Below, piece after piece: positions 1-50,200 of a stretch of DNA of 64,000 nucleotides. Numbering within the stretch: position 1 is the stretch's first letter; the number at the start of each line of letters is the position of its first letter. The DNA is from Antedon bifida (lineage: Eukaryota; Echinodermata; Crinoidea; Comatulida; Antedonidae), in NCBI GenBank assembly GCA_963402885.1, contig OY727094.1:33668501-33732500 (forward strand), given 5' to 3'. The position numbers were made by a program, and so were the translations under genes. The notes under the pieces were generated by a model, which searched no databases, had not been told where the DNA came from, and saw only the letters and a program-made list of their open reading frames with translations.

Positions 1-3000
1 AAGCAAGCAAACTTTGGTTTGTAAGCTAGTCTAGGTTATAAATATTTTGGCACACATGGCGTTTCATATCAAAACACGTCCTGAGGGGTGGCCTAACATA
101 ATATAAGACTTGTGGCAGTCTACAGATAAGTCAGAGATCGGCAAAACTTCAATTGACATATGCAATAACAATCAGTAGATTTGATTACCTCTGCACATGG
201 AGGAGATCTGGAAACTTCAAACCAGGCACTTCTATTTAAGTATTTACAGTAAAATCTCTAAAGGTCACCGATTCTACAACTATATTTACTTTCCCACATA
301 AAGCTCCGAACTAACAATCATAAACTCAAAGAATAAAATGTCTGCCCTTTTTTAATTGCAGTAATCAGTATTGCCCTTATAAGTGACGTAAGTTTCCTTA
401 TATTTTGCATAGGTAATCCAGTGTAATTGCAAGGTTTGCCACCCCGATTTAGGGAAGCATTTCCTCGACAACACTGAGGAAAGGTACAGTACCATAAGGA
501 TGGAGAAAGCACCTTAACAAAGAAACATCTCAAAATAGATAAAAACAACCATTTGTTTCCTTGCAGTTATTTATTTGTAACTTATTTCTCCATTCTTTAA
601 GTATAATAATAGCACGCTATTTTTTATTCAGGTTGTATTAAAAACACGCCAACATTTTTGACAATAGAACAGCTAAAGTATTGACTTCTGAACAGTGTAT
701 AACTTAGCCTTCTCTTGCCCAATAAAATATACTTTATACATTTTCTCACATTATTATTAGTATCATGAATCCCTGTGCCCTACACACACGATGTACATGA
801 TGGACTCATAATAAATACTTTTGGTTTTCTATCTAGTAACATATTAAATTTACAACTCTATCTCAAATAAAACATTTGCAAATTGTGTTGAAACAAGTGT
901 TATTTAAAAAAAATGTTTTATGGCATTTTTTTATTAACCTTTTATTGAAAGGTGCTCAAGTTATTTTAAATATTATAACACTTTTTTTTCATATTTTTAC
1001 AGTTATTTATTCTATTTTAGAATTCTAAAACGTTGCATTTTTCAAACTGTAAAAAAATACTTTGGATTTATTAGAATGGGGTCAGTTAAAGTCAGTTAAC
1101 TGAATGAAATATCCCAAACCTCAATTCGTGGATTTCATTACGTTGGGTATTTTGAGACATTCGTGACTAAATTAGTGTTTGAAAGTTATACATAGCCATG
1201 AATACATTCAATAGCTTTTGGTGCAACTTAAGTATAAATCTGGTTTGTTTTACCCGTCTACCAATTTTCACTATTAAATCTACTGTATCTGTATCTGTTT
1301 GTTACTTCCAATTTGTTGCCGAAATTTTAACAAAATAATTTACTCAAATTCTAGATTGAGGAAATAAATAACGAGTTAAGATTGTTGTAAAAAATGAATC
1401 GTAATTTTTTTTTTATTCTTTCCATTGAAATATTCAATTCATCAAAGTTTCAAATTACAATAGAATCATTTTTATATAAAATTTTACTTTTAATAAACTC
1501 AGCCCATTTAATTCCTAATGTTATAGTATACAATTGTTTTATTTAAATTAAATATGAGTGTTTAAATAAATAATGTAACTGATTTTTATTATGAATATTT
1601 AAAATGTACTCAATTATTTTTACATTCCAACATATTAAAAATTGTATATATATTTATAATATACATTTTTTTATTAGTAATTACAATATTATGATGAAAT
1701 TTATTTGTTTAAAATAAATGTATTCGTTGTTTTTTCCTTTTTTAACCTAATTTGAACATAAATATATGTTTATTGAAAGACATTATCTACTACTACTACC
1801 AATAAAATAATTAAGTATATTTTAGGGGAATTATAAAACTTATTTTTTTTAAACACTTATTACTATCTTGTTTCCTGTTGATCTAATAAAAATGTCATGA
1901 TATATATCAATCATTAAGGTATTTATTTGTGTTGACAAGACTACAACGAATTTGCCTTAGTGGTAAAAAAGGTGTCGTGATCATTTTCACCCATGCTTTC
2001 TCCTAATTACTTTGCATTTTTCATTTCATGTTTTCAAATGTATAGTGACTTGTCGATAAGTGTGTCACATTTATTAAACATGTTGTTAGGCCCGACAAGG
2101 CAGTAAATAATGGTGCTGAAAAATTACGTGAAATTTAATCAAGATTTAACGTATTGATTTCTGTAAAAGAGATATATCATATCCTACTTAGCGAAAGCAA
2201 ATAATTTTAAAGAACTATTTTGTATATTTAGTAATATTTTTTATAATTTATTTATACATTTTTTGTGGTTATTTTAAGACTCATTTTTCATACCATGTGT
2301 TTATTGCTATTTATTAACAAATATTTTGGGTTTTTTTAATTTGGGTGTAGATGGTAAATGACCTAGTTAATGGTAATAAGCTTTGGGCAGAGCTAATGGT
2401 ACATATACTGTTTTGCGCATTGATACGGGACATTGATATTGGTTACTTGTAAACTTAACTGAACAGGATTAGAATTTGAAGCAAAGTAGTGTTAATGTAA
2501 ATGCATGTCGCATTGCTTTAAAAAAAAATGCCCAAATGGTGATGTCCCTAATCGGTTCCCAGAGGTTTCTTCCCAATGCCTATCTTTGTCATTTGCCTCG
2601 ACCTGATTTACTCTTACTCTTTTCGTATGGAATTTTCCCCCATGGAGAATGTGTGTTGGGAATCGCATGTTCTCATTATAACTTGATTACAAGGAACCGA
2701 CCTACTTCTGTTACCATGCAAGCTGGACTACCAAGCCTATATTTGTTTCTGAGTCATCCAAATAGAGGGGGCACTCCATAAATTTCAGATGTTCCAAGTT
2801 ATTGCATGTGTCTATTTTTTTTCACTCACTATTTATTAAGTACAGTAGCTTTATGTTTAATACACCACCTAATTAGTATATGTAGTTACTTATGTTAGTC
2901 ACTTATGTTATTATATATAAAGCAGATGGGAACGCCATGTATAGATTGTAATATATTATTTATGATATTTGTAGCATTTCGTAATGAGAGTATAATGTTC

Positions 3001-5496: not shown

Positions 5497-6895
5497 ATGG
5501 ATAGTAGCAGTGAAGATGAAATTATTGTAAGCTTGATTTTAAACAGAAGAAGAAAGAAACGTACAAAGAGATCTGTTTGGATCAACGAAATTAACAAAAA
5601 AAGAGCAAACATGGGCCAGTATATGTGTCTTATAAATAATGATTTGCAATCTATGGAAGACGAATATTACAAATATTACAGAATGACAGAGGAACAGTTT
5701 GAAACCATTTTAGACCTAATCAATGCCGACATAAAAAAACAAGACACTCGTTTTAGAAAAGCAATTACACCCAGAGAACGTCTATCAGTTTGTTTAAGGT
5801 AAAACAAATAACCAAGTTTTATTTAATTAACCGACAATTACTAACAATAATGAGAATGAAGAAAATATTAGTTTTTACTGGAATGCTATCCATATATACA
5901 ACCATTGCATAAATTGATCATTGGATATAATAATAATTATCTTATTATTTATCTTTCTGTACAGGTTTTTGGCTACAGGCGACTCATATGGATCATTTCA
6001 TTATAACTATAGAATGGGCGTATCAACTGTCTCTATGATAGTGGTGGAAGTGTGCATAGCCATCTGGAATAGACTCAGTGGGATATATATGGCAATACCA
6101 TCATCATCTGACGATTGGGAGCGTTTGGCTAGGGACTTCTACATACGATGGAACTACCCTAATGCATTGGGCGCAATTGATGGAAAGCATGTTCATGTTA
6201 CAGCTCCTAACAACAGCGGGTCTCAATATTTCTGTTACAAGGGCCATTTTTCCATCGTACTTTTGGCATTGGTAGATGCTGATTATTGCTTTACATATAT
6301 TGATGTAGGCAATTTTGGATCAGCGAGTGATGGAGGGATATACTCTAGAAGCTCCTTGGCAGAGGAAATCGATAATGGCAGAATTCAATTTCAAGGGCCC
6401 ACATCTTTACCGGATGCTCCTGAATTGGGTGCAATGCCACATGTAATACTCGGAGACGAGGCATTCCCATTGAAGTCAAACATGATGAGGCCCTTTCCCG
6501 GTAAGCACTTAACCGACGAAAAGAGAATTTACAATTACAGGCATTCTCGAGGAAGAAGAATATCAGAAAATGCTTTTGGTCAACTGTGTGCACGATTCAG
6601 GATTTTTTTCCGCGTCATCAATTTGTCTCCAAATAACGTTGATCATGTTATAAAGGCAACATGTGTCCTTCACAATTTCATAAAGAAGACAAGCCCCAGT
6701 GGGATGCCTACTTGTAACTCCCACATTGAAAGCACACAATCAATTTTAGACAATTGTGAAGGAATCTCCAATTTGGATAAATTAGGTTACCGTGGGTCAC
6801 AAGACGCAATAGAAGTACGCAACAAGTTTGCAAAGTATTTTAGTTCTGAGGCAGGCAAGGTTTCTTGGCAAAACAAGCATTGTTTTGGAAATTAG
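5497..6895 (+). CDS. Harbinger DDE transposase (HARBI1-like), two exons
   Basis: Model join(5497..5798, 5965..6895), 410 residues. The 166-base intron has a GTAAAA donor and a TTTCTGTACAG acceptor; joining it gives ...SVCLR/FLATGDSYG, the conserved PIF/Harbinger block. The catalytic triad is visible as D173 (AIDGKH), D265 (LGDEAFP) and E302 (RRISENAFGQL), spaced as in HARBI1 relatives. The N-terminal 100 residues are basic and charged (RRRKKRTKR), a probable nuclear signal and DNA-binding part. The enzyme should cut and join the element ends in the nucleus, normally with the MADF/Myb-like partner encoded downstream. AATAAA motifs follow near 6990. No frameshift or stop is seen, so it may still be functional. 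Confidence 0.88.
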
Positions 6896-13500: not shown

Positions 13501-13959
13501 AAAGAAATTAGTTTAATTGCCAAGGAATCACCTGCGCAGATCCTGGTGGGGACATGTCTCCCCCTCCCACATATTTTTAGTGGGGACTGTCCCCCTCACA
13601 CTCCCAACAGAAAAATCATTAAATTGTTAAAATGAATAGAAAGTATGACTTCTATGACGTGCATGACAGCCTAAATGTACTAAAAAGTATTTCATTTTTA
13701 TACGTGCCTTCCCCCCCCCCCCCCCTCCGATATTAAAAACGGATCTGCGCCGTTCAATGAATGCATCCTTTTTCAGATTACCAACAATCTCCGAATTTCC
13801 CATAAAGTTAGATAGTAAAACAGACTTCCTTCTTCCAACAAAAATAGTATAATATATTATAAAATAGAATGATATTGTAAATTAAAGTAAATAAGTATAA
13901 TATCATATTCAATAAAGGTTGTATGTACTCCTAGATTGACACCAATGTAGGCAGGCTTA

Positions 13960-14055
13960 CTCACCACCGAGTTTGAACTGCATGACTCTTGCGGTAGTTC
14001 GCCGGCTGGGCGTATCTCCTCAGGCTGACTTGGAATGACTTTTTTCCACACACAG
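13960..14055 (-). other. Conserved exon-like open block, repeated in every 1.1-kb unit
   Basis: Read on the minus strand, each unit has an open stretch (VWKKVIPSQPEEIRPAGELP..., about 95 bases) preceded by AATCTAG, an acceptor-like AG, and ending TCGGTG followed by GTGAGTAAG, a near-ideal splice donor. It recurs near 15059-15154, 16160-16255, 17261-17348 and 52405-52502. Unit 4 has a 2-base insertion (GTATCTCTCC) that breaks the frame. There is no ATG in frame and no linked exons could be found. It might be an old captured exon or chance. I recognise no family. Confidence 0.3.
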
Positions 14056-14299
14056 GCCTAGATTTTTAGGCGAAGACTTAGACCTCAAACATGTGACGTT
14101 TTCACGCTAAAATGTTGTCCTCTATCTGTTCGAAGATTTTATATTTTACACTTATTAGTTATGCAATAATCGTTACGATAACATTTATGATTTGAGCTCT
14201 TGTTCATCCTCTAATAATAGTAGGCACGCACTATCTGGCTGCTGGGTTTTTGTGCACGGGTATTTTGAAACAACTATCGCGACGTGATGTTTGAACTTA

Positions 14300-14456
14300 A
14301 GCTCTGTCTACACTGTCAAACTTTATGTGACAAAAAGTGTGATGTGTCCATATGGACATGATGATGTCATAGAACTACCATATTTAAGCATTCCCATATC
14401 AATGGGCACATCACACTTTTTTTGTCAAAGTAGTTTGATAGTGTTTTGACAGAGCT
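14300..14456. mobile_element. MITE (AGCTCTGTC family) in unit 1
   Basis: Inverted ends AGCTCTGTC...GACAGAGCT flanked by TTA on both sides (14297-14299, 14457-14459). Subterminal parts (GTGTGATGTG / CACATCACAC) also pair. Non-coding. A 3-base TTA flank fits a Harbinger-type TWA target duplication. Confidence 0.75.
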
Positions 14457-15398
14457 TTAGGGAGGCGCGGCCTAAAATAAATAGTATAGACGCTGTCGTC
14501 AAAAAAAAGTTTGGTAATGGTAGCGTGCGTGTCAAATAAGGAGACGGCGCAAATTTTTGAACTTTTGATTGTACTCAAGATTGTATGATCATAAAGAAAT
14601 TAGTTTAATTGCCAAGGAATCACCTGCGCAGATCCTGGTGGGGACATGTCTCCCCCTCCCACATATTTTTAGTGGGGACTGTCCCCCTCACACTCCCAAC
14701 AGAAAAATCATTAAATTGTTAAAATGAATAGAAAGTATGACTTCTATGACGTGCATGACAGCCTAAATGTACTAAAAAGTATTTCATTTTTATACGTGCC
14801 TTCCCCCCACCCCCCCCCCCCCCCTCCGATATTAAAAACGGATCTGCGCCGTTCAATGAATGCATCCTTTTTCAGATTACCAACAATCTCCGAATTTCCC
14901 ATAAAGTTAGATAGTAAAACAGACTTCCTTCTTCCAACAAAAATAGTATAATATATTATAAAATAGAATGATATTGTAAATTAAAGTAAATAAGTATAAT
15001 ATCATATTCAATAAAGGTTGTATGTACTCCTAGATTGACACCAATGTAGGCAGGCTTACTCACCACTGAGTTTGAACTGCATGACTCTTGCGGTAGTTCG
15101 CCGGCTGGGCGTATCTCCTCAGGCTGACTTGGAATGACTTTTTTCCACACACAGGCCTAGATTTTTAGGCGAAGACTTAGACCTCAAACATGTGACGTTT
15201 TCACGCTAAAATGTTGTCCTCTATCTGTTCGAAGATTTTATATTTTACACTTATTAGTTATGCAATAATCGTTACGATAACATTTATGATTTGAGCTCTT
15301 GTTCATCCTCTAATAATAGTAGGCACGCATTATCTGGCTGCTGGGTTTTTGTGCGCGGGTATTTTGAAACAACTATCGCGACGTGATGTTTGAACTTA

Positions 15399-15555
15399 AG
15401 CTCTGTCTACACTGTCAAACTTTATGTGACAAAAAGTGTGATGTGTCCATATGGACATGATGATGTCATAGAACTACCATATTTAAGCATTCCCATATCA
15501 ATGGGCAAATCACACTTTTTTTGTCAAAGTAGTTTGATAGTGTTTTGACAGAGCT
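15399..15555. mobile_element. MITE (AGCTCTGTC family) in unit 2
   Basis: Same 157-base element at the same place within the repeat unit, so it was copied by the tandem amplification and not inserted independently. TTA flanks are kept. Confidence 0.75.
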
Positions 15556-16499
15556 TTAGGGAGGCGCGGCCTAAAATAAATAGTATAGACGCTGTCGTCA
15601 AAAAAAAGTTTGGTAATGGTAGCGTGCGTGTAAAATAAGGAGACGGCGCAAATTTTTGAACTTTTGATTGTACTCAAGATTGTATGATCATAAAGAAATT
15701 AGTTTAATTGCCAAGGAATCACCTGCGCAGATCCTGGTGGGGACATGTCTCCCCCTCCCACATATTTTTAGTGGGGACTGTCCCCCTCACACTCCCAACA
15801 GAAAAATCATTAAATTGTTAAAATGAATAGAAAATATGACTTCTATGACGTGCATGACAGCCTAAATGTACTAAAAAGTATTTCATTTTTATACGTGCCT
15901 TCCCCCCCACCCCCCCCCCCCCCCCTCCGATATTAAAAACGGATCTGCGCCGTTCAATGAATGCATCCTTTTTCAGATTACCAACAATCTCCGAATTTCC
16001 CATAAAGTTAGATAGTAAAACAGACTTCCTTCTTCCAACAAAAATAGTATAATATATTATAAAATAGAATGATATTGTAAATTAAAGTAAATAAGTATAA
16101 TATCATATTCAATAAAGGTTGTATGTACTCCTAGATTGACACCAATGTAGGCAGGCTTACTCACCACTGAGTTTGAACTGCATGACTCTTGCGGTAGTTC
16201 GCCGGCTGGGCGTATCTCCTCAGGCTGACTTGGAATGACTTTTTTCCACACACAGGCCTAGATTTTTAGGCGAAGACTTAGACCTCAAACATGTGACGTT
16301 TTCACGCTAAAATGTTGTCCTCTATCTGTTCGAAGATTTTATATTTTACACTTATTAGTTATGCAATAATCGTTACGATAACATTTATGATTTGAGCTCT
16401 TGTTCATCCTCTAATAATAGTAGGCACGCATTATCTGGCTGCTGGGTTTTTGTGCGCGGGTATTTTGAAACAACTATCGCGACGTGATGTTTGAACTTA

Positions 16500-16656
16500 A
16501 GCTCTGTCTACACTGTCAAACTTTATGTGACAAAAAGTGTGATGTGTCCATATGGACATGATGATGTCATAGAACTACCATATTTAAGCATTCCCATATC
16601 AATGGGCAAATCACACTTTTTTTGTCAAAGTAGTTTGATAGTGTTTTGACAGAGCT
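16500..16656. mobile_element. MITE (AGCTCTGTC family) in unit 3
   Basis: Same 157-base element, TTA-flanked, co-amplified with the unit. Confidence 0.75.
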
Positions 16657-17593
16657 TTAGGGAGGCGCGGCCTAAAATAAATAGTATAGACGCTGTCGTC
16701 AAAAAAAAGTTTGGTAATGGTAGCGTGCGTGTAAAATAAGGAGACGGCGCAAATTTTTGAACTTTTGATTGTACTCAAGATTGTATGATCATAAAGAAAT
16801 TAGTTTAATTGCCAAGGAATCACCTGCGCAGATCCTGGTGGGGACATGTCTCCCCCTCCCACATATTTTTAGTGGGGACTGTCCCCCTCACACTCCCAAC
16901 AGAAAAATCATTAAATTGTTAAAATGAATAGAAAGTATGACTTCTATGACGTGCATGACAGCCTAAATGTACTAAAAAGTATTTCATTTTTATACGTGCC
17001 TTCCCCCCCCCCCCCCCTCCGATATTAAAAACGGATCTGCGCCGTTCAATGAATGCATCCTTTTTCAGATTACCAACAATCTCCGAATTTCCCATAAAGT
17101 TAGATAGTAAAACAGACTTCCTTCTTCCAACAAAAATAGTATAATATATTATAAAATAGAATGATATTGTAAATTAAAGTAAATAAGTATAATATCATAT
17201 TCAATAAAGGTTGTATGTACTCCTAGATTGACACCAATGTAGGCAGGCTTACTCACCACTGAGTTTGAACTGCATGACTCTTGCGGTAGTTCGCCGGCTG
17301 GGCGTATCTCTCCTCAGGCTGACTTGGAATGACTTTTTTCCACACACAGGCCTAGATTTTTAGGCGAAGACTTAGACCTCAAACATGTGACGTTTTCACG
17401 CTAAAATGTTGTCCTCTATCTGTTCGAAGATTTTATATTTTACACTTATTAGTTATGCAATAATCGTTACGATAACATTTATGATTTGAGCTCTTGTTCA
17501 TCCTCTAATAATAGTAGGCACGAATTATCTGGCTGCTGGGTTTTTGTGCGCGGGTATTTTGAAACAACTATCGCGACGTGATGTTTGAACTTA

Positions 17594-17750
17594 AGCTCTG
17601 TCTACACTGTCAAACTTTATGTGACAAAAAGTGTGATGTGTCCATATGGACATGATGATGTCATAGAACTACCATATTTAAGCATTCCCATATCAATGGG
17701 CACATCACACTTTTTTTGTCAAAGTAGTTTGATAGTGTTTTGACAGAGCC
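17594..17750. mobile_element. MITE (AGCTCTGTC family) in unit 4
   Basis: Same element; the right tip has AGCC instead of AGCT. TTA flanks are kept. Confidence 0.72.
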
Positions 17751-17830
17751 TTAGGGAGGCGCGGCCTAAAATAAATAGTATAGACGCTGTCTGGTAATGG
17801 TAGCGTGCGTGTAAAATAAGGAGACGGCGC

Positions 17831-19164
17831 AACACACAGGAATCAAATATTCCAGATTGTAATTTTATCTTTGAAGACAAGTTTAAATAAAAATCGCAAT
17901 ACAAAAAAAAACATTTAAAAAACGTGGTCATTAAACTATGATACCATGATATTTTTACTTCCTTTAAATAATGATAAATAAAAGTAAAAAGAAAAAAATA
18001 AGTAAAAATTAAATAATAATAATATAGTTATGTGGTTATCTTGTACACAATTATTTTACTTTGGTGTCGTCGATAACTGTAATATCTAGCCTTCTTCTGA
18101 TTCTATTGCACCTCTTTCAAGCAGACCTGGATCGGCTCTAGACTGCGAAAATGGTATGAGCAAAAAAAAAATCCAATAGGCCTAGAGGTGGCAATACATA
18201 ATAAATACAGTTTGTTTTTCAACATACTTTTTAGTTTCTGAAATCTTTAAATAATTCTATACAAGGGTTTAGCAAGACTGTGTTATATCCAGGTAGTGTT
18301 ATTTAAGAACAGCCAGTTAAAAAAACATTTTAGGCATGAACCATACCTCAGACATGAATTAGATCATGGAGCTTTTTATTTTTAAATGTTCATCGTTAGG
18401 CCTATATGTTTTTTTGTACCTTTATATTATCTCCAAATGCAACTAAATTGAATACTATACTATAGAGAACATATGAAAGTAAATTATTCAAAATAACCTA
18501 CATAAACAAAAACAATTTCAAAAACAACAAAATACAATTGGGCCAATTTGAAGATATTATTGAATAATAATATAGAGAGATTGTTCCTCCGCGTCAATGC
18601 AATACCTAATATATGGAGAGACTGACTGTATAGAGAGTTTCTTTGTTTATTTCTGACCTAATAAAACATGGACTGCTATTAAACAAATCGATGTGCACTC
18701 GTAGTCTTACACAAATTAGTGTGTAGGCCCATTTTTAATGATTTGAACTGTACTTAAATACAATGCAACTTATTGCTGAATGCTTAAGTTTATACCGTTA
18801 AAACGTTCATTTTCATAACCAATATAAATACTATCAATTTAAAACCATGATGCGTACAGTATCTTGTCAAAAGTTGTACTAACTGAAATCTGTAGAGGGC
18901 AGCAGACTATAACTTTGTTAGGTTTTAGATGGAATAGATTTTCCCAATTTCACATACCTTAGTTCTTCACGAAAACTTGCCATCGAGTGGAGGGGGTCCA
19001 GGGGCGAGATTAGTGCCATCAGATTCGAGGCTCTGACTACGTGACTATAGCAAGGAAGTAAACACATTTATAAAAGTGTATTTATTTATTGATTAGACAC
19101 GCCATGCACCTGGCCATACCATGAACGTAACATTTGTCCTTACCAACAGGCCATTGCTAGTACT
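17831..19164. other. Gene-free duplicated DNA (pair of 52993-54310)
   Basis: Almost identical to copy B over its whole length, with a few substitutions and small indels. It has no exon chain. At 18862-18960 it contains a block resembling the last GSTK1 exon (shared CTGTAGAGGGCAGCAGACTA). At about 19010-19130 it contains a partial copy of the upstream module found before NLR1 (CTCTGACTACGTGACT, GGAAGTAAACACATTTATAA). Confidence 0.7.
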
Positions 19165-23858: not shown

Positions 23859-26800
23859 ATGGCGGCAACAGGTAACAAACAATAAATAGTCTTTATGTAT
23901 TGCATCGAGAAGAACAATTTTAAAAATGTTTTCTCTAATCTTTTTTCCTTTTTCCCACTTTTTATATCTTTAGAAATAGATTTTAGTGTGGACTTGGTGA
24001 ACTTTTCAGAATGGTATGATAAAAACAACCTGGTCAGACAGCTGAAGGTTTTATACCACGATTTAATTTCAGTAGCAGACATAGACAAAGCCAACACAAC
24101 GATAGATCTACTGAATGCATTGAGGAAAACGGGACGTTTAAGCCCAGGCAATCTGGAGTTACTTTATGAAACGATAAAAGTAACCCAAACGTTTGGAGCT
24201 ATCAAAGTTTTCCAACAATCTTTCTTCGAAGTTCAAGAAATACAAATTATAAATTTCACCCCATATCGACACTGGATTGCAGATTTTGGAAACGAATTAA
24301 GAAAGGCTGCTGTTAAGAAAATTGATGCACTCTACAACAATCCTTTAAAGAATTATGAAGACTCTTGGAGTATGATTATAGACTTGGAACAAAGACAAAT
24401 ACTTTGTGAAGAAAGAAAAGAAGAGTTTATTAACATTCTTAATAAAATTGGACTGGCATCAACGATGAAATGCCTGACACAAGGTATGTAACAGGAACGA
24501 ATTAGCAAACAAATAATTAGTTGGAGAAGATTATAAAAAATAGCCTATAGTTAATATCGTTCCCAAGCGTAACTCAGAATTGGATTAGAACAGGGCATCT
24601 TGCCTAATGACACAAACATCAGCATGGTACAAATATGGTCGAACTCATGCCTATTCTAGCTCGATTTCCATCATTCCACCACTTGGTCTATAACAGCAGC
24701 CGACGCGATATTTCCAGACGGTATTTTCAAAAACGCAACCAGGCCCAACGAATTGCTTAACTTCCGGCAATCTGACGAGAACCGGTGTTTCAACGCATTA
24801 TGTCCGAACATGGAGAAATAAGTTATTTCTCCATAGTCCGAATAAAAGAGGTACACACAATGACCAACAAATATATGCCCGTATTTACCACCACCGCTAC
24901 TCTGATCTGATAATAATGCTCCCAATTTGATTTTCATTAAGTAGGAAATTATTATTTTATCATTTGAATTGTATTGGTATTATTTTGTATTATTTCTTAT
25001 TAATATTATTTATTAAACAGTAAATGCGCCGAACACCAGTAACGAAGCACAAAGAATACAGATTGAACATGAAACAAGTGAGTTATTAGTAATAGTAAAT
25101 ATTATATTTTCTGCACTATACGGAAAAAACATAACAAATATTGTAATAAGCTTAATCAAAATTATGATCTAGTATTAGAACAATCCATCGTTGTCTTACA
25201 TAACACCTCATTAGTGCAGTCGGATATGATACAGAATTTAGATGTCAGATTGTTTATGACACCGTATTTATTCGAATAAATGCATGCCCCGGGGAGTTTA
25301 TGGTTCGGCAGGGTTTTACGGGGGACGTATAAGGGAGGCAATTTTGTTTTAATTCATGTGAATATTGCCTATAGTTTGTTTTATAAAGTTGAAACACATT
25401 TATTGTGACTTTATTATACTACTTAGGTTTTCATTACGTAAAAATCACTGTATTTTCATGTGTTTTTATTAGTTTACACAGAGGAAGAGCCGACTAGTAG
25501 TAACGCAAGCATGAGAGCAGATGTGAAGTTACAAACAGGTAAGTTACAGTACCGCTGTTCAACAAACAACATGATTTATTGTGTTGGTAATGTGTAATAA
25601 TGACATTTTTTTTTATGCATGAATGAATTGTTTGCTGAATTGCGCTACTAATATTACTTTAGAGTCAGATTGTTTTGTTTATTACTTATTTGTTTATTTA
25701 TTAAACAGTGGAAGTGCCGACGACCAGTGGTAATGAGGGAACACGAAAAGAAGTTAAATCAGAAACAGGTTAGTTACTGTTTACCATTAAGCTTAAAAAC
25801 AAGCCACGTAACACAAGATATTATAGAAAGTTTCTTATTTTGTGATTATACCTATAAATTGTAAATAAATATGGAGATTGAGGAACACTGAAATAGATTT
25901 AGGTGGTTCCTTATCACACAAGTGGAATCAATAGACTTCCAAAAATAGTAGTGTGCTATGGAAGCCAAATCAACCACAAATACATTCCATTTATCATTCG
26001 TACTAAAGTATAATTAAAAAAAACTTGAAATTGTTATAATATAAAGCTTGGACTAAAATAAAAAAGAAAGGGCATACTAAAAATAATTACGGGAAAACCC
26101 AATCTAAAAAAAATAATTACAACAATCACTCAATCAATTTGTTTGTTCGCCACAAACACTGATCATTGGCTGAATATTTAGCAAAACTTGTTTGGCCATT
26201 ATTTGAATTTAACTCGAATGGTTTAGGTTTTTTTATATCTTAATTAGATGTTTATGCTGAAATGAATCCCAAAAATTATTGTAATTTCACATTTTTCCTG
26301 TTTTATTTATTACACAGAGGAAGTGCCGCCGACCAGTGGTAGGCCTAACGAAGGAACGCAAAAAGAAGTTAAATCAGAAACTGGTGAGTAGGCAGATTAA
26401 CAAATAATATTACAATTCAATGGGTGGAAGGTTTGTGAATTTATGCTCTCTGTAAAATGTATCTAATCTCAAATTTTGTTAAATATTTAGTATTTTTTGC
26501 TTTGTTTGTTATTGTCTCTTGTTATTACAAAAACAGTTTGACGTCATTTTCGATTAATGTTTGAAGTTTTCTTCTTATGATTGATTTCAAATTGTGTTTG
26601 TCGCCCTCTATATACAAGTGCGTTACTAGAAAAGACAATTTTTGGTGAAAAAAGACCTTACTGGGCTATTTATCATTAGTAAATGTGCCGAACACTAGTA
26701 AAACAGAACAACGAACGCAAATAGAGTTTAAATCAGAAACAGGTTTGTTATTAAAATGTAATGTATACATTTTCACCCAAAAGAAGTTTATTATGCGGTA

Positions 26801-35364: not shown

Positions 35365-35519
35365 TTTCTTTATTTTGTTAGGCCAGTACTGTACTCTCTG
35401 CTGCTGCTGCCAGTTGAGTTTTGTAGCGCAGATGGCTAGGATCGGAGAGAGAGGAGGCGAGGCCTCTACTCGCTAACTTCTCTCCGTCGGCGGTGAGGGC
35501 GCAATATTGATAAACAATA

Positions 35520-35547
35520 CAGAGCCATATATATATATATGGCTCTG
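35520..35547. repeat. 28-base hairpin with 8-base flanking direct repeats
   Basis: Perfect palindrome CAGAGCC(AT-run)GGCTCTG. AAACAATA occurs directly on each side (35512-35519 and 35548-35555). Its sequence differs from the CATGGA hairpins, but the arrangement is the same. Confidence 0.6.
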
Positions 35548-35753
35548 AAACAATAAACATCAAAGAAGTCGTTTATGGAGGGCTAGGGAGAAATGCAGTA
35601 ATTGCAGGTAGGTAGGAGGATACCGTAGGCAGGCCTAGGTATTTATAGTATAAAAACAAACAAAAAACACTGTTGGTGTTTCATTGATAGTAAATTAACA
35701 CATTGAAAGAAGTACAAGATCCCGTTGTTTAACGAATTGTGTTTTTTGAACAA

Positions 35754-38467: not shown

Positions 38468-38754
38468 TGTCACATCACCTTCACCTCAGTGAAAGCTAGG
38501 GCAAATTGGACCACTGGACAGCAACACTTGTTTATACTTGTTTATAGTAACTCCCATTAGAAATCCCATTAGAGCTATAATAAATTCCACAATATACCAA
38601 CTCAGTGAACAGTTAATAGATTATCATATTCTCTCCAGTCTTCGGACAACCAACATTAAGTTCAATCCAATAAAGCTTATATATATTCAACAGTATAAGT
38701 GTATTACTTGTTTTAATGTAAAACAACCGTCAACGTATATCAGAAGATATTACA
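38468..38754 (+). repeat. 5' LTR of Gypsy element
   Basis: TGTCACATCACC ... GATATTACA. Contains AATAAA-type and TATATATA motifs suited to promoter and poly(A) functions. The primer-binding site candidate starts at 38755. Confidence 0.92.
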
Positions 38755-38836
38755 TGGTGGCAGCGGTGGGATATAATAATAAAACCTTTGTGCTAGTACA
38801 GTTTAAAGGAATTTTTGTATCAAAAACCAACGCATC

Positions 38837-41800
38837 ATGGCGGATAAACAACCACATATGGATTGGAACTCTGCAAACATAGGCGATTCGTTTCGGATGT
38901 TTAAACGACGAACTGAATTGTATTTTACAGTAAAGAATATTTCACAGGAGGACCGCATCAACCATCTATTATTAATGGTAGGTGAAGAGGGACTTAAAAG
39001 ATTTGATTCGTGGGGACTAACCGAAGAAGATAAGGAGAATATCAATACTATTTGGGAGAAATTTGAGGAGCAAATAGAGCCACAATCGAATTTCCGTGTC
39101 TCAAGAATGTATCTTCAGAAACTAAAACAACAACCGGGTGAGTCGATTGATGACTACATTACTAAACTTAAATTCCATGCAGAAAAATGCGCATTTACAG
39201 CCGCAGAAAAAGAAACGAGAATCATAGAACAAATGACCATAGGAACCATATTTAAAGATCTCCAAAAAGAACTTCTCACAAAAAACCAAGAATACAGACT
39301 TGAGGAGGCCATAACCCTAGCTAGGGGACACGAGGCATCCCTCATGCACCACAAGCAATTAGATGAATTTGATACACAACATGCAAAAATAAGCTACGTG
39401 TCACGTGCCAAAAACAAATGTAAAGCGTGTGGACAAATGCATCGCCCTCGAGAATGTCCAGCATATGGCTCAACTTGCCACAACTGTGGTAAATTAAACC
39501 ATTGGGCCAAAATGTGTAGATCGTCGAAACAAAATGTGCATCCTCGTAATGATCAAAGTACCGACCGTCATCAACAAAAACGACAAAAACCAAAAAGCCA
39601 TGGAAAAGGCAAGCTAAAATCTAGAAGTGGAATACACTCAATGAATCAATATGAGTCTGATTCGGATGATGACATACTTGAACAGCATATGGAAAAATTG
39701 ACATTTGGTTCAGTGCGCATGAGCAGCATCAACGCTAGTGAAAAATTCACTAAACTTGACATAAAGTTACCACGTATGGAAAACCAAATAGCTGAACTGA
39801 ACATCAAAGTTGATACTGGAGCTGAGGGTAATACTCTTCCATTGCGAATATTTGGAAATATGTACCCAAATCATATAAACGCACAAGGATATCCCAAAAG
39901 CGGAATCCTAAAAGAATCAAACACTAAACTTACCGCATACAATGATGCACATATTCCTTGTTATGGAATATTACCGATAAAATGCAAGCATCCAACCAAT
40001 TGTATTTATACAGAGGAAACATTTTACATTGTGGATTGCAAAGGCCCAGCGATTTTGGGATTACCGACGATACAGAAACTAGAATTAATAAAATTCAATT
40101 GCAGTATCACAACAAAGGAAAACAAATCAAGTCCGATAATAGACACTGCAGACCTAAAAAACAGGTATCCTGACAGATTTGACGGTATGGGAGATTTTGC
40201 GAAACCGTACCACATAGTAACGGACAAAAACGTCACACCCATTGTGCACGCTTGCAGGAAAACACCGATTAAACTTGCAGGACAGATCAACGCCGCACTT
40301 GATGATATGGAAGCAAAAGGTGTAATAAAGAAAATTGATGAACCAACAGATTGGGTAAGTTCAATAACGTACCCAATCAAACCAGACGGGTCAGTGCGAA
40401 TCTGTCTTGACCCTAAAGACCTCAATGAGGCGATAAAGAGAAGCCATCATAAGACTCCGACCTTAGAGGAACTCACTCACAAACTAAATGGAGCAAAATA
40501 CTTCTCTAAACTTGATGCCAAGAATGGCTACTGGTCGATACACCTTGACAATGCTTCTCAAAAACTAACAACATTTAATTCTCCGAAAGGCCGATACTGT
40601 TTTAAACGCCTTCCTTTTGGTTTAAACGTATCACAAGATGTTTTCCAACAGAGAATGGATATGATATTAGAAAAATGTCCAGGAACAATTGGGATAGCCG
40701 ATGACGTAGCAATATTCGGCAAAACTGAAGCCGAGCATGACGCCAACCTCCACAACCTGATGGAAATTGCGAGAGAGTCAGGATTAATGTTCAACTCTAA
40801 AAAATGTAAAATTAAGCAACGAGAAATAACATTTTTTGGTATTGTCTACAGCAGCGAAGGGGCACGACCAGACCCAAAGAAAATATGTGTCATTCAACAA
40901 CTAAAAGTACCCGAAAACAAACAAGAGCTCCAAGAATTTCTTGGCATCGCCAACTACATGGGTCCCTTTATTCCCCATCTCGCTGATTTGACAGAACCCC
41001 TACGTCAATTGCTAAAAAAGGATACGCAATACAGTTGGACACCTGCACATACAAATGCCTACCAACAGACAAAACAGGCAATCTGCAGTGAAATCCGACT
41101 TTCATACTTCGACCCGAAAAAACCTGTAATATTACAGGTGGACGCAAGTAAAGTTGGACTCGGAGCAGTGTTGCTCCAGCCAAATGACAAAAACGAAGAA
41201 ATGCCAGTAGCGTTTGCCAGCAAAGCACTTACAGACACTGAGAAACGATACGCAAACATCGAACGCGAACTACTGGCAGCAGTTTTTGCGTGTGAAAAAT
41301 TTCACACTTACGTTTATGGAGGAAAATTCATAATATACACAGACCATAAGCCGCTTGAGATGATCGCCCTCAAAAACTTGAATGCAGCTCCACCACGATT
41401 ACAAAGGATGCTACTAAGACTGCAAGGATACAACTGCCAGATCATATATAAACCAGGAAAAGAAATGACACTGGCAGATTCACTCTCCCGAATTGGAAGC
41501 TCAAAGGAAAATGAGCAAGTGGACCAACGTTATACGGAACTTGATATAAGAGTGTGTCCAGTACAGTTTAGCGAAAACCGGTTAACTGAACTTAAGCACC
41601 ACACCAAGTGTGACAAAACACTTTGCGAACTCGGCAAAATAATATTTGAAGGTTGGCCAGAAAAACAAATTAAGCTCTCCAAAGGCGTTAAAGAATATTG
41701 GTCAATGCGCGATGAGCTAACCGTAGAAGACGGCATAATTTTAAAAGGGCAGCAAACTGTTATACCAAATGAAATGAGAACATACATATTGGATCAACTA

Positions 41801-42820
41801 CATGCCGGCCACCAAGGCATAACAAAAACACGACTAAGAGCAAGAACCGCCGTATATTGGCCGGGCATAAACAACGACATAAAAACAATGTGCGAGAGAT
41901 GCACAGTTTGTGAACAATTTCAAAACACTCAACCTAAAGAACCACTAATTCCTATGAAAATACCAGAACGCCCATGGCATACTCTCGGAACTGACCTTTT
42001 TCATTTTAATTCAGAAGACTATCTAATCATAGCAGACTATTACAGCAAAATGTTCTTCATACGGAAGATGCCCACAAATGTGACGAGCAGTGCTGTAATT
42101 CAAGCAACGAAACAAATTTTCGCAGAACAAGGGTCACCACACACTATCATCTCCGACAATGGCCCACAATTTGCTTCGGAACAATACAAACTATTCTGCA
42201 AAGATTGGAAAATAATTCATACCACCAGCTCACCTCACTACCCCAGATCAAACGGTTTTATTGAACGCATGATACAGACAGTAAAATCAACACTTAGAAA
42301 ATGCAAAATTTCTGGCACCGACCCAGACTTAGCATTTCTGTGCTTACGTGCAACTCCAATAAACTCACATCTACCAAGTCCAGCAGAAATATTATACAGA
42401 CGACGCATACAAGCAAACCTACCAGAAGTGATAAAATCTAACGACCCTGAAAGCAAACAGATACAAAAACAATTAGTGCAGCGCCAGACAGATCAAAAGT
42501 TTCATCACGATAAAAACAAAACAAAATTTCTTCCAACGCTTTCGAAAGGCCAAAACATCACAATCCAGCATCCACATAAAAAAACATGGACGCCTGGTAT
42601 CGTAACTAATCAACTACCTCAGCCAAGATCGTACATCGTAGAAACTACAAATGGAACATATCGACGAAATCGAAATCAAATACGGAATAGACAAACGCAT
42701 TCATCTGGACCGGATACGTACGATTTGACCATTGATAAACAACCACCATTTATACCACCCTACACTCCACCAATAACAAGAAGTAAAACTCGAAAGACGA
42801 GGAAGGATGATAGAAAATAA
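38837..42820 (+). CDS. Gypsy gag-pol polyprotein, 1327 residues
   Basis: One uninterrupted frame from ATG 38837. In order: gag (LKQQPGESIDDYITKLKFHA, ~100-120), two CCHC knuckles (CKACGQMHRPREC and CHNCGKLNHWAKMC, about 194-225), aspartic protease (VDTGAEGN, ~326), reverse transcriptase (DPKDLNEAI, LPFGLNVSQDVFQ, IADD at ~619 instead of YxDD), RNase H (LQVDASKVGLGAVL, IYTDHKPLE), integrase with an HHCC finger (HAGHQG...CERCTVCEQ, ~986-1035) and DDE residues (TDLF ~1051, SDNGPQFAS ~1106, FIERM ~1142). The tail is basic with no obvious chromodomain. The product makes cDNA from the element RNA and integrates it. No stop or frameshift is seen. Gag and pol are fused without the usual frameshift site, as in some Gypsy clades. 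Confidence 0.95.
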   Translation: MADKQPHMDWNSANIGDSFRMFKRRTELYFTVKNISQEDRINHLLLMVGEEGLKRFDSWGLTEEDKENINTIWEKFEEQIEPQSNFRVSRMYLQKLKQQPGESIDDYITKLKFHAEKCAFTAAEKETRIIEQMTIGTIFKDLQKELLTKNQEYRLEEAITLARGHEASLMHHKQLDEFDTQHAKISYVSRAKNKCKACGQMHRPRECPAYGSTCHNCGKLNHWAKMCRSSKQNVHPRNDQSTDRHQQKRQKPKSHGKGKLKSRSGIHSMNQYESDSDDDILEQHMEKLTFGSVRMSSINASEKFTKLDIKLPRMENQIAELNIKVDTGAEGNTLPLRIFGNMYPNHINAQGYPKSGILKESNTKLTAYNDAHIPCYGILPIKCKHPTNCIYTEETFYIVDCKGPAILGLPTIQKLELIKFNCSITTKENKSSPIIDTADLKNRYPDRFDGMGDFAKPYHIVTDKNVTPIVHACRKTPIKLAGQINAALDDMEAKGVIKKIDEPTDWVSSITYPIKPDGSVRICLDPKDLNEAIKRSHHKTPTLEELTHKLNGAKYFSKLDAKNGYWSIHLDNASQKLTTFNSPKGRYCFKRLPFGLNVSQDVFQQRMDMILEKCPGTIGIADDVAIFGKTEAEHDANLHNLMEIARESGLMFNSKKCKIKQREITFFGIVYSSEGARPDPKKICVIQQLKVPENKQELQEFLGIANYMGPFIPHLADLTEPLRQLLKKDTQYSWTPAHTNAYQQTKQAICSEIRLSYFDPKKPVILQVDASKVGLGAVLLQPNDKNEEMPVAFASKALTDTEKRYANIERELLAAVFACEKFHTYVYGGKFIIYTDHKPLEMIALKNLNAAPPRLQRMLLRLQGYNCQIIYKPGKEMTLADSLSRIGSSKENEQVDQRYTELDIRVCPVQFSENRLTELKHHTKCDKTLCELGKIIFEGWPEKQIKLSKGVKEYWSMRDELTVEDGIILKGQQTVIPNEMRTYILDQLHAGHQGITKTRLRARTAVYWPGINNDIKTMCERCTVCEQFQNTQPKEPLIPMKIPERPWHTLGTDLFHFNSEDYLIIADYYSKMFFIRKMPTNVTSSAVIQATKQIFAEQGSPHTIISDNGPQFASEQYKLFCKDWKIIHTTSSPHYPRSNGFIERMIQTVKSTLRKCKISGTDPDLAFLCLRATPINSHLPSPAEILYRRRIQANLPEVIKSNDPESKQIQKQLVQRQTDQKFHHDKNKTKFLPTLSKGQNITIQHPHKKTWTPGIVTNQLPQPRSYIVETTNGTYRRNRNQIRNRQTHSSGPDTYDLTIDKQPPFIPPYTPPITRSKTRKTRKDDRK

Positions 42821-43120
42821 AATAAATTGAACTATAGAATAATAATAATAATTAACAAATATGAACTCTAATACTTATTATTGCTTAACTTTGTCGAATG
42901 AACTAAATAAAAAAAACTGCTCGCAGCTCTATATGGACAGCTAAATTTTGTACAATCGAAACTACTGTATACAGTATAACTTTTTATAATCTCAAATGTA
43001 ATTGCTAATATAGGACAGAAAGCTGTATATAACTAATGCTTCAAATAGCCCGAATAACTAACTAAAATTAGCGTATTCCCAAGGCACCATGTAAATTAAT
43101 GAACAATTACACCTTGTACT

Positions 43121-43132
43121 AAAAAGGAGGGA
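43121..43132 (+). other. Polypurine tract of Gypsy element
   Basis: AAAAAGGAGGGA immediately upstream of the 3' LTR; primes plus-strand DNA synthesis in this class. Confidence 0.8.
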
Positions 43133-43419
43133 TGTCACATCACCTTCACCTCAGTGAAAGCTAGGGCAAATTGGACCACTGGACAGCAACACTTGTTTAT
43201 ACTTGTTTATAGTAACTCCCATTAGAAATCCCATTAGAGCTATAATAAATTCCACAATATACCAACTCAGTGAACAGTTAATAGATTATCATATTCTCTC
43301 CAGTCTTCGGACAACCAACATTAAGTTCAATCCAATAAAGCTTATATATATTCAACAGTATAAGTGTATTACTTGTTTTAATGTAAAACAACCGTCAACG
43401 TATATCAGAAGATATTACA
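43133..43419 (+). repeat. 3' LTR of Gypsy element
   Basis: Same length and, by eye, same sequence as the 5' LTR. Followed by the ATATC target duplication. Confidence 0.92.
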
Positions 43420-44028
43420 ATATCAACTGAGAATTTGTATCATTTCTGTAGGCCCAACAGTAAACATCATCGTTTTGGGCCGCCAATATAATTGACTATT
43501 TTTTCAATCACATTGTCAGAAAATGAAAATGTGATGTGAATATAACAATGGAGAAACTTTCATGGAGAAATAACTTACTTATTTATAACTAACTTATTTT
43601 TCCGTGATATAACTAATGAAACAATGTTTAGAAAATGATATATCTGATAGATATCATCTAAGTGATGTTTTACATATAACGTTTAACTTTTTTTTTTCAT
43701 GTTCCATACATTCAATTCTTTTAATATAGTTCTTGTATAACACCATATCAAGTAGTAGTAAATATTATTGTAGGGTTTTCTTATTATTTAGTCAATTCAG
43801 TGTTTCTATACAGAAAAGAGTAGTCAATGGCCTTAACATCAATTAATTGTATAATTTGCACCCAAGGTCGAATAGCAAGAAACTCAGGTCCAGTTACATT
43901 GGTGTTCATTGGTCAATAGAAAATGAACAGCACACTTATGGGTGGTGACAAAGTTTAGTTATTGATAAATTGTCCTTGGGAAAAACACATTAGTTGGGCT
44001 GACCATGGGCTGACAGAGTTAACGACTT

Positions 44029-44060
44029 CGTAACGCTATCCGGGGCTCCTGCGCCTAATG
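44029..44060 (-). repeat. Perfect 32-base inverted repeat, right arm
   Basis: Reverse complement of 35754-35785. The pair encloses 8.3 kb with the satellite block and the Gypsy element. Confidence 0.85.
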
Positions 44061-44189
44061 ATCAATATTTGACAAAATGATTTGAAATGAATGATATGCG
44101 CAGCCTCAGTCTCAGGAGGCGGAGGAGGTACTAGGCCTACCACCAGATAGTATACCTCCCTGGTACTACAGTACAGTAGGTAGTAGTAG

Positions 44190-44233
44190 CATGGAGCTAT
44201 AAAATTTTATAAATACAATTTTATAGCTCCATG
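44190..44233. mobile_element. 44-base hairpin insertion with 7-base direct repeats
   Basis: Perfect 17-base arms (CATGGAGCTATAAAATT and its complement) around a 10-base loop. GTAGTAG flanks both sides (44183-44189, 44234-44240). The flank is simple sequence, so the match alone is weaker here. Confidence 0.65.
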
Positions 44234-44461
44234 GTAGTAGTTTTAGTAGGCTAGTAGGCCTACCTAGGATATCCCGATAAAGAGTACCTGCACTTTTTTA
44301 CATATAATAATAATAATAATAATATTTATTCGGCAAAAGTTCATAAAGTACAATTCAATTCAATTCTAGCTTGTGACGTGTTGGCAGGGGTGTGGCAAGT
44401 ATGGTGCCAGTGTGGTAAACCAGCTGTGCAATTTCAGTATTATATTACTAACTAATATCAT

Positions 44462-44489
44462 GGAGCTATAAAATTATAGCTCCATGCTA
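44462..44489. mobile_element. 28-base hairpin insertion with 7-base direct repeats
   Basis: Perfect palindrome, arms CATGGAGCTATAAA and TTTATAGCTCCATG sharing the centre AATT. CTAATAT flanks both sides (44455-44461, 44490-44496). Same arms as the 44190 element but without its loop. Confidence 0.75.
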
Positions 44490-45344: not shown

Positions 45345-45371
45345 CATGGAATTCTAATTTATAGGTCCATG
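45345..45371. mobile_element. 27-base hairpin, CATGGA family (NUDT8 intron 1)
   Basis: CATGGAATTCTAATT...GGTCCATG, imperfect in the centre. Flanks CTTGAAC (45338-45344) and GTTGAAC (45372-45378) agree at 6 of 7 bases, consistent with an older 7-base duplication. Confidence 0.55.
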
Positions 45372-47206: not shown

Positions 47207-50200
47207 AAGCAAGCAAACTTTGGTTTATAAGCCATTCTTGGTTATAAATATTTTGGCATACATGGCGTTTCATACGTATAATGACAAAATCAAATCACGT
47301 CCTGAGGGGTGGCCTAACATAATATAAGACTTGTGGCAGTCTACAGATAAGTCAGACATCGGCAATACTTAACTTGACATAAGAAATAACAAACAGTAGA
47401 TTTGATTACCTTTGCACATGAAGGAGGGTGCATCTTGTGAATTTTTATGGGTGCCTGGAAACTCCCCCCAACCCCCCCCCCCCCCCCCCCCATCTTGGAT
47501 GTGCCTATAAAAAACCGTACAGTAATATTTCTTACTCTTCAATTTACTTGAAAACCTACTAGACAAATACAGTACATGTAATCATGTTAAATGTTGTTAC
47601 ATTGAACATTGAAAACTGGTTAAGATAATAAAAAATCTGGAAGATAAAACAACACAAAGTGACACAAGTTGGTTTGACGAATCCAGCTTCTTCATATTTA
47701 TTAATGCATTATTGCACACATTAACTCATTAAAATATAAAATACATATTTTGATTACACAGAATATATTATAGTTGCTGTCCATAGAAATATACAATTGT
47801 TAGCATACACCTTAAATAAACATGTTAATATCATTGTTACGTTCCCATTTACATTGCATCTTTCAAACCAGGCACTTCTATTTAATAAGTATTTACAGTA
47901 AATTATAGATATTTCTAAAGGTCACCGATTCTACAACTATATTTACTTTCCCACATAAAGTTCCGAACTAACAATAAACTCAAAGAATAAAAATGTCTGC
48001 CCTTTTTAAATTGCAGTGATCAGTTTTGTCCTTATAAGTGACGTAAGTTGCCCTATATTTTGCATAGGTAATCCAGTGTAATTGCAAGGTTTGCCACCCC
48101 GATTTAGGGAAGCATTTCCTCGGCAACACTGTGGAAAGGTACAGTACCATAAGGATGGAGAAAGCAACTTTACAAAGAAACATCTCAAAATAGATAAAAA
48201 CAACCATTTGTTTCCTTGCAGTTATTTATTTGTAACTTATTTCTCCATTCTTTAAGTATAATAATCGCACGCTATTTTTTATTCAGGTTGTATTAAAAAC
48301 ACGCCAACATTTTTGACAATAGAACAGCTAAAGTATTGACTTCTGAACAGTGTATAACTTAGCCTTCTCTTGCCCAATAAAATATACTTTATACATTTTC
48401 TCACATTATTATTAGTATCATGAATCCCTGTGCCCTACACACATGATGTACATGATGGACTCATAATAAATACTTTTGGTTTTCTATCTAGTAACATATT
48501 AAATTTACAACTCTATCTCAAATAAAACATTTGCAAATTGTGTCGAAACAAGTGTTATTTAAAAAAAATGTTTTATGGCATTTTTTTATTAACCTTTTAT
48601 TGAAAGGTGCTCAAGTTATTTTAAATATTATAACACTTTTTTTTCATATTTTTACAGTTATTTATTCTATTTTAGAATTCTAAAACTTTGCATTTTTCAA
48701 ACTGTAAAAAAATACTTTGGATTTATTAGAATGGGGTCAGTTAAAGTCAGTTAACTGAATGAAATATCCCAAACCTCAATTCGTGGATTTCATTACGTTG
48801 GGTATTTTGAGACATTCGTGACTAAATTAGTGTTTGAAAGTTATACATAGCCATGAATACATTCAATAGCTTTTGGTGCAACTTAAGTATAAATCTGGTT
48901 TGTTTTACCCGTCTACCAATTTTCACTATTAAATTGTGATATCCATCTACTGTATCTGTATCTGTTTGTTACTTCCAATTTGTTGCCGAAATTTTAACAA
49001 AATAATTTACTCAAATTCTAGATTGAGGAAATAAATAACGAGTTAAGATTCTTGTAAAAAATGAATCGTAATTTTTTTTTTATTCTTTCCATTGAAATAT
49101 TCAATTCATCAAAGTTTCAAATTACAATAGAATCATTTTTATATAAAATTTTACTTTTAATAAACTCAGCCCATTTAATTCCTAATGTTATAGTATACAA
49201 TTGTTTTATTTAAATTAAATATGAGTGTTTAAATAAATAATGTAACTGATTTTTTTTATGAATATTTAAAATGTACTCAATTATTTTTACATTCCAACAT
49301 ATTAAAAATTGTATATATATTTATATACATTTTTTTATTAGTAATTACAATATTATGATGAAATTTATTTGTTTAAAATAAATGTATTCGTTGTTTTTTC
49401 CTTTTTTAACCTAATTTGAACATAAATATATGTTTATTGAAAGACATTATCTACTACTACTACCAATAAAATAATTAAGTATATTTTAGGGGAATTATAA
49501 AACTTATTTTTTTTAAACACTTATTACTATCTTGTTTCCTGTTGATCTAATAAAAATGAATAAAAATGTCATGATATATATCAATCATTAAGGTATTTAT
49601 TTGTGTTGACAAGACTACAACGAATTTGCCTTAGTGGTAAAAAAGGTGTCGTGATCATTTTCACCCATGCTTTCTCCTAATTACTTTGCATTTTTCATTT
49701 CATGTTTTCAAATGTATAGTGACTTGTCGATAAGTGTGTCACATTTATTAAACATGTTGTTAGGCCCGACAAGGCAGTAAATAATGGTGCTGAAAAATTA
49801 CGTGAAATTTAATCAAGATTTAACGTATTGATTTCTGTAAAAGAGATATATCATATCCTACTTAGCGAAAGCAAACAATTTTAAAGAACTATTTTGTATA
49901 TTTAGTAATATTTTTTATAATTTATTTATACATTTTTGTGGTTATTTTAAGACTTATTTTTCATACCATGTGTTTATTGCTATTTATTAAGGAATATTTT
50001 GGGTTTTTTTTTATAATTTGGGTGTAGACAGTAAATGACCTAGTTAATGGTAATAAGCTTTGGGCAGAGCTAATGGTACATATACTGTTTTGCGTATTGA
50101 TACGGGACATTGATATTGGTTACTTGTAAACTTAACTGAACAGGATTAGAATTTGAAGCAAAGTAGTGTTAATGTAAATGCATGTCGCATTGCTTTAAAA

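What the first reader, a model, noticed from the sequence alone, without database searches (positions are those of the whole stretch)
24802..24842. Ultra-short palindromic insertion with a 7-base target duplication and an empty site in the paralogue
A 27-base near-perfect hairpin (arms CATGGAGAAATAA / TTATTTCTCCATA) lies between two copies of GTCCGAA. Copy B has one GTCCGAA and no hairpin at 55205-55211. That is the signature of transposition, yet the insert is far smaller than any ordinary MITE. I know of no described family of this size; of known eukaryotic classes, Dada elements make 6-7-base duplications, but a link is speculation.
Basis: seen in the sequence. Interest (0 to 1): 0.85.

Follow-up and report, generated by a model that had tools for sequence, protein, structure and literature searches.

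The report
Scars left by jumping DNA excision
The tiny hairpin is one of several similar marks in this DNA that look like scars left behind when a jumping gene of the P-element type cut itself out, rather than a record-small jumping gene.

Summary
In detail: a 27-bp near-palindrome (24809-24835) lies between exact GTCCGAA copies, and the paralogue has one copy and no hairpin. It is not alone. The window holds inserts of 60, 44 and 28 bp with exact 7-bp duplications, one of 27 bp (6 of 7), and a doubtful 96-bp relic (5 of 7), all with CATGGA...TCCATG-like ends.

Best explanation: fossil excision footprints of a P-superfamily transposon of the 1360/Galileo kind. P transposase leaves 17-nt tails of the inverted repeat on both flanks; repair joins them into a short palindrome. 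Three ends share exactly 17 nt and then diverge. Two 17-nt tails taken from other loci anneal over 7 nt to give the length and core of the given insert. The 44-bp insert is 17 + 10 filler + 17, like published Drosophila junctions. Target sites match the P-group motif (22 of 30 positions; 0 of 200,000 random draws).

Dada is disfavoured because it lacks terminal inverted repeats. True ultra-short MITEs remain the main rival. The host genome could not be searched, so no parent element was seen.

The parts
24802..24808 (+). left copy of 7-bp target-site duplication GTCCGAA (E1)
24809..24835 (.). E1: 27-bp palindromic insert, the finding; best read as two 17-nt transposon ends overlapping by 7 nt
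24836..24842 (+). right copy of GTCCGAA
55205..55211 (+). empty site in the paralogue, single GTCCGAA
43547..43606 (.). E2: 60-bp insert between ATATAAC copies (43540-43546, 43607-43613, 7/7); its outer ends pair at only 7 of 12, but it holds an inner palindrome 43561-43606 readable as 17-nt end + 12-nt filler + 17-nt end, preceded by 14 nt that look like a second partial end
44190..44233 (.). E3: 44-bp insert = 17 + 10-nt filler + 17, between GTAGTAG copies (7/7; the flank is itself a GTAG-type repeat, so this duplication is the least secure of the four exact ones)
44459..44486 (.). E4: 28-bp insert between CTAATAT copies (7/7); left 17 nt identical to both ends of E3
45345..45371 (.). E5: 27-bp insert with diverged ends, between CTTGAAC and GTTGAAC (6/7)
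499..594 (.). E6: 96-bp doubtful older relic with related ends, flanks CCATAAG/CTTTAAG (5/7, no better than the best crossed-flank control); also in the second paralogue
48154..48249 (.). E6 copy in the second paralogue (if an insertion, older than the duplication)

Best explanation
E1 and its kin are fossil excision footprints of a P-superfamily DNA transposon, closest in behaviour to 1360/Galileo. Inferred steps: (1) a larger element with ends CATGGAGAAATAA(C/G)TTA or CATGGAGCTATAAAATT inserted, duplicating 7 bp; (2) its transposase later cut one strand at the element tip and the other 17 nt inside, so both flanks kept a 17-nt 3' tail of the element's end; (3) alternative end joining (polymerase-theta type) annealed the tails or filled between them, leaving duplication-palindrome-duplication. 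E1 fits annealing of the last 7 nt of two complete tails (17+17-7=27). E3 fits two complete tails with 10 nt of filler (44). E4 fits a complete tail joined to 13 nt of the other through 2-nt microhomology (28). Shown: the structures, the 7-bp duplications, the 17-nt boundary in the E3/E4 set, the target motif. Inferred: the parent element, its transposase, and excision itself.
For: Exact 7-bp duplications at 4 of 6 loci, 6/7 at a fifth, 5/7 at a sixth; crossing left and right flanks of different loci gave at least 2 mismatches of 7 in all 30 combinations. E3L, E3R and E4L share exactly 17 nt and then read T, G, A; E4R shares 13. With tails taken from other loci (E6R or E2R, and E2L), two complete tails anneal to a 27-bp product at assumed tail lengths 14-17 of the 12-22 tried, with the longest overlap (7 nt) at 17; at 18-22 no product that uses both complete tails has this length. 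The product differs from E1 at 2 or 3 bases, in the outer part of the ends. P transposase leaves 17-nt 3' extensions (PMC7776569, passages), and Drosophila excision junctions have this layout, e.g. 8-bp duplication, 16 nt, 10-nt filler, 16 nt, duplication (PMC2895639, section 7 with Table 1). 1360 makes 7-bp and P 8-bp duplications (PMC3276498, passages); Galileo makes 7-bp, rarely 8-bp (PMC4168063, passages). The P-group motif A|GTnnnAC|T scores 22 of 30 over five sites; random window positions average 1.66 of 6, 0 of 200,000 draws reach 22, and shifts of 1-4 bases give 3-13. E2L matches the Drosophila P 17-nt tail at 14 of 17, the best of 534 CATG 17-mers in the window; 9 of 534 reach 12. 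Deleted Drosophila P elements are reported to need at least 138 and 216 bp of their two ends to move (PMC1562414, passage).
Against: No parent element or P transposase was found: a search for CATGGA-like ends up to 8 kb apart with 7-bp duplications gave no convincing long element, and the host genome could not be searched. The 17-nt rule is clean only for the E3/E4 set: E2R and E6R also match at 9 of 13 positions beyond 17 (101 of 20,000 random window 13-mers do as well), and so do E2L and E6R, so that subfamily's shared end may be longer. Longer tails of 18-22 nt, trimmed back, give the same E1 product through the same 7-nt overlap, and E4 is reproduced at assumed lengths 15-22; annealing both complete 17-nt tails would give 30 bp for E4, not the 28 seen. 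E6 (96 bp) and E2 (60 bp) are long for simple footprints. Fillers copying 6 and 7 nt of the ends are not rare enough to prove templating (336 and 204 of 5,000 controls). Any 27-bp palindrome can be cut into 17+17-7; only tails from other loci make this a test, and for E1 it rests mainly on the length and one central base. The motif was put together from published halves after I had seen the sites; the outermost pair of the duplication (positions 1 and 7) is complementary in 0 of the 5 sites, against 5 of 5 for 2/6 and 4 of 5 for 3/5.
Confidence: 0.65

Rival explanations
1. A true family of ultra-short MITEs: units of 27-96 bp made of little more than two inverted ends, moved in trans by a P-superfamily transposase.
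For: Several inserts with like ends and 7-bp duplications. E4 could be an internal deletion of E3 (inspection). E2 and E6 share some similarity beyond the 17-nt ends.
Against: In E1 the two 17-nt ends overlap by 7 nt. I saw no interior shared between inserts in the printed arms, apart from the E2/E6 similarity. A 27-bp piece leaves little DNA to bend for pairing the ends (general knowledge), and Drosophila P is reported to need more than 100 bp of each end (PMC1562414 passage).
Confidence: 0.23
2. Relics of another cut-and-paste superfamily making 7-bp duplications, such as Dada or an undescribed group.
For: Dada makes 6-7-bp duplications (PMC3706591, passages). The superfamily of the parent is not shown directly.
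Against: Dada is described without terminal inverted repeats and in small-RNA genes. Target motif and ends resemble the P group.
Confidence: 0.08
3. Palindromes made by template switching or hairpin-primed repair at breaks, with the direct repeats incidental.
For: Near-perfect palindromes are a usual product of template switching (general knowledge).
Against: Four of six loci have exact 7-bp duplications, the ends are alike, and the sites share a target motif; 0 of 60 shuffles gave any insert passing the strict scan.
Confidence: 0.04

Closest known systems
End-joining footprints of Drosophila P element excision (PMC2895639, section 7 read)
   Same: Target duplication, up to 17 nt of each inverted end, microhomology or short filler between, target duplication
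   Different: 8-bp duplication there, 7-bp here; made in the laboratory in repair-deficient flies, whereas these are in a natural sequence; the parent element is unknown here
1360 and Galileo transposons, P superfamily (PMC3276498 and PMC4168063, passages)
   Same: 7-bp duplication; palindromic target motif of GTnnnAC type (1360 GTTNAAC, Galileo GTANTAC)
   Different: Those are known from whole or deleted copies; here only ends are present and no transposase was seen
P-MITEs of Anopheles gambiae (PMC1562414, passages)
   Same: Non-autonomous relatives carrying P ends
   Different: 8-bp duplications there, and P sequences of less than 100 bp at each end around an unrelated centre; here 27-96 bp in all and 7 bp
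Zebrafish Pdre2 / THAP9 element (PMC10983969, passages)
   Same: Short (13-bp) inverted ends beginning CAT
   Different: 8-bp duplications; a full-length element with its gene is known there
Dada transposons (PMC3706591, passages)
   Same: 6-7-bp duplications
   Different: No terminal inverted repeats; insert into U1, U6 or tRNA genes

Membership tests
P-superfamily excision footprint | flanking target-site duplication of P-superfamily length (7 or 8 bp) | tested here: met
   exact 7 bp at 4 of 6 loci, 6/7 and 5/7 at the other two
P-superfamily excision footprint | insert made of the element's two inverted ends, at most 17 nt from each, plus optional filler | tested here: inconclusive
   fits E1, E3, E4; E5 fits but has no independent ends to test it; E2 and E6 carry more sequence and some similarity beyond 17 nt
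P-superfamily excision footprint | target-site motif of the P group | tested here: met
   22 of 30 motif positions over 5 sites, 25 of 36 over 6; 0 of 200,000 random draws reach either; motif assembled from published halves after the sites were seen
P-superfamily excision footprint | full-length parent elements with the same ends and a P-type transposase in the genome | not tested
Ultra-short MITE | copies at different loci share the same interior | tested here: inconclusive
   no shared interior seen among the window's inserts, except the paralogous E6 pair and a partial E2/E6 similarity; genome not searchable
Dada | 6-7-bp duplication | tested here: met
Dada | no terminal inverted repeats | tested here: not met
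   inserts end in inverted repeats; definition from passages
Dada | insertion into small-RNA genes (U1, U6, tRNA) | not tested
   no RNA-gene search of the sites was run

The most novel reading that the evidence does not exclude
The 27- and 28-bp palindromes are themselves transposing units, smaller than any cut-and-paste element I know of, recognised through 13-17 bp ends alone by a P-type transposase with a 7-bp target stagger.
Probability: 0.18. Interest if true: 0.85.

Novelty: new member of a known kind. Interest (0 to 1): 0.5.

Why it matters
If these are footprints, natural genomes carry a readable record of past P-type excisions, including how far inside the element the second strand was cut. 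In the passages I read, the 17-nt stagger is described only for Drosophila P. Counting such scars genome-wide would show whether 7-bp-duplication relatives in other hosts cut the same way, and how the breaks were closed. It also warns against naming short palindromes with target duplications as mini-transposons.

Tried and rejected
Dada: disfavoured for lack of inverted ends (passages). Chance palindrome: rejected. KolobokP: its solo elements have duplications of 3-4 or 4-5 bp (PMC9587614, passages). A long parent element inside the window: the search for CATGGA-like ends up to 8 kb apart returned 13 rows with at most 1 mismatch in 7; 5 are inserts listed here, and the other 8 (153-7915 bp) have 4 or 5 mismatches in 12 between their ends, so I took them as chance. 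E6, with 2 mismatches, was below that threshold and came from the list of short pairs in the same call. Templated filler as proof of polymerase theta: not supported statistically.

Literature: a search with terms for ultra-short MITEs returned no paper. Of the searches for footprints and excision scars, one search returned one paper (passages read), and the listed rows (15 of 29, 10 of 77, 6 of 6, 12 of 28 papers) showed no title or abstract start on natural P-type footprint surveys. I saw listings only there, so this is not a claim that none exists. Searches served to find the papers cited or led nowhere.

Four inserts (E2-E5) lie within 1.82 kb. Four of six falling so close had a chance of 235 in 200,000 under uniform placement, but the span was chosen after seeing it. 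Local hopping is a possible cause, untested.

Full report
What is there. The 27-bp near-palindrome at 24809-24835 lies between two exact GTCCGAA copies, and the paralogue at 55205-55211 has one copy and no insert. The window looks like animal DNA: among 8 open frames scanned against Pfam are NACHT and leucine-rich-repeat frames, a death-effector-domain match (34.2 bits, just under Pfam's cut-off of 35.9), a DDE_Tnp_4 transposase and a retroelement polyprotein; 2 of the 8 had no match. That it is an animal is inference, and the organism was not identified.

It is one of a set. I number the inserts E1 24809-24835 (27 bp), E2 43547-43606 (60 bp), E3 44190-44233 (44 bp), E4 44459-44486 (28 bp), E5 45345-45371 (27 bp) and E6 499-594 (96 bp, also at 48154-48249 in the second paralogue). 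Flanking duplications are exact over 7 bp for E1-E4, 6 of 7 for E5 and 5 of 7 for E6. Of lengths 2 to 12 tested, only 7 matched exactly at E1, E2 and E4; E3 also matched at 4; E5 and E6 matched exactly at none. Crossing left and right flanks of different loci gave at least 2 mismatches of 7 in all 30 combinations, so E6's own 2 mismatches are no better than the best control and E6 is doubtful. Sliding the right flank gave 1 mismatch for E3 at a shift of 9 and 2 at several others, because its flank is a GTAG-type repeat.

A scan not tied to the CATGGA ends, for maximal direct repeats around pieces of 22-130 bp with ends inverted at 9 or more of 12, gave outside tandem arrays: 19 cases at 5 bp, 2 at 6 bp, 4 at 7 bp (E1, E3, E4 and one weak 128-bp case), 1 at 8 bp (a different palindrome at 35520) and none at 9 or 10 bp. 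E2, E5 and E6 do not pass that scan: E2's outer ends pair at 7 of 12, and E5 and E6 lack exact duplications. In the stricter scan 0 of 60 shuffles gave any case.

What the ends show. E3L, E3R and E4L are identical for exactly 17 nt and differ from the 18th base; E4R agrees for 13. E1, E2 and the better end of E6 share a second version of the end, CATGGAGAAATAA(C/G)TTA; E1 and E2 each have C at position 14 on one end and G on the other, and E6R has G. For E1, tails taken from other loci (E6R or E2R on one side, E2L on the other) anneal over their last 7 nt when cut at 17 and give a 27-mer that differs from E1 at 2 or 3 outer bases. Of the tail lengths 12-22 tried, 14-16 give the same product with shorter overlaps, and 18-22 give it only if the tails are trimmed. 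For E4, joining a complete 17-nt tail to 13 nt of the other through 2 nt reproduces it exactly, but so do other assumed lengths from 15 to 22, and annealing both complete tails would give 30 bp instead of 28.

Why P. P transposase cuts 17 nt inside the element on one strand (PMC7776569, passages), so the donor flanks keep 17-nt 3' tails, and Drosophila repair junctions show the same layout as E1, E3 and E4 (PMC2895639, section 7 with Table 1). Within the P superfamily, 1360 and Galileo make 7-bp duplications (PMC3276498 and PMC4168063, passages). The five better sites fit the published P-group target motif at 22 of 30 scored positions, against about 8 expected from the window average of 1.66 per site; 0 of 200,000 random draws did as well, and shifting the motif by 1-4 bases gave 3-13. 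All five have T at position 2 and A at position 6 of the duplication; 10.8% of window 7-mers do. Positions 3 and 5 are complementary in 4 of 5 sites, positions 1 and 7 in 0 of 5. E2L matches the Drosophila P tail at 14 of 17, the best of 534 CATG-starting 17-mers. I combined the motif from published halves after I had seen the sites, and hobo (hAT, 8 bp) has a similar motif, so this is support rather than proof.

Results against. E2R and E6R agree at 9 of 13 positions beyond the 17th base, which 101 of 20,000 random pieces do, and E2L and E6R agree at 9 of 13 as well, so in that subfamily more than 17 nt may be shared. The fillers in E2 and E3 copy 7 and 6 nt of the ends, but 204 and 336 of 5,000 random pieces do as well. 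No parent element was recognised in the window, and the genome could not be searched in 13 attempts (listed in the membership table).

Judgement. The transposition part of the reading stands, Dada is disfavoured, and an ultra-short transposon is less likely than a set of excision scars from a 7-bp-duplication P-type element. Footprints of this kind are known from Drosophila experiments; a natural set of them would be a new example of a known thing. The genome-wide count would decide.

Noticed in passing
35512-35555: A 28-bp palindrome CAGAGCC(AT)nGGCTCTG lies between two exact 8-bp copies of AAACAATA: a second kind of ultra-short palindromic insert, with hAT- or P-like duplication length.
   Followed up: partly
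38468-43419: A gypsy-type (recalled label) retroelement with two identical 287-bp terminal repeats (38468-38754 and 43133-43419), an open frame of 1337 codons and a 5-bp flanking repeat ATATC: apparently a recent insertion, directly beside the E2-E5 cluster.
   Followed up: partly
13501-17832: About four tandem copies of a 1.1-kb unit, about 98% identical to each other; a related stretch in the second paralogue is 84-87% identical over about 1 kb.
   Followed up: no
43547-45371: Four of the six inserts lie within 1.82 kb, which may reflect local hopping or a hot spot.
   Followed up: partly
5918-6895: Open frame for a DDE transposase (Pfam DDE_Tnp_4, 1.6e-31); the label Harbinger-type is recalled.
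   Followed up: no
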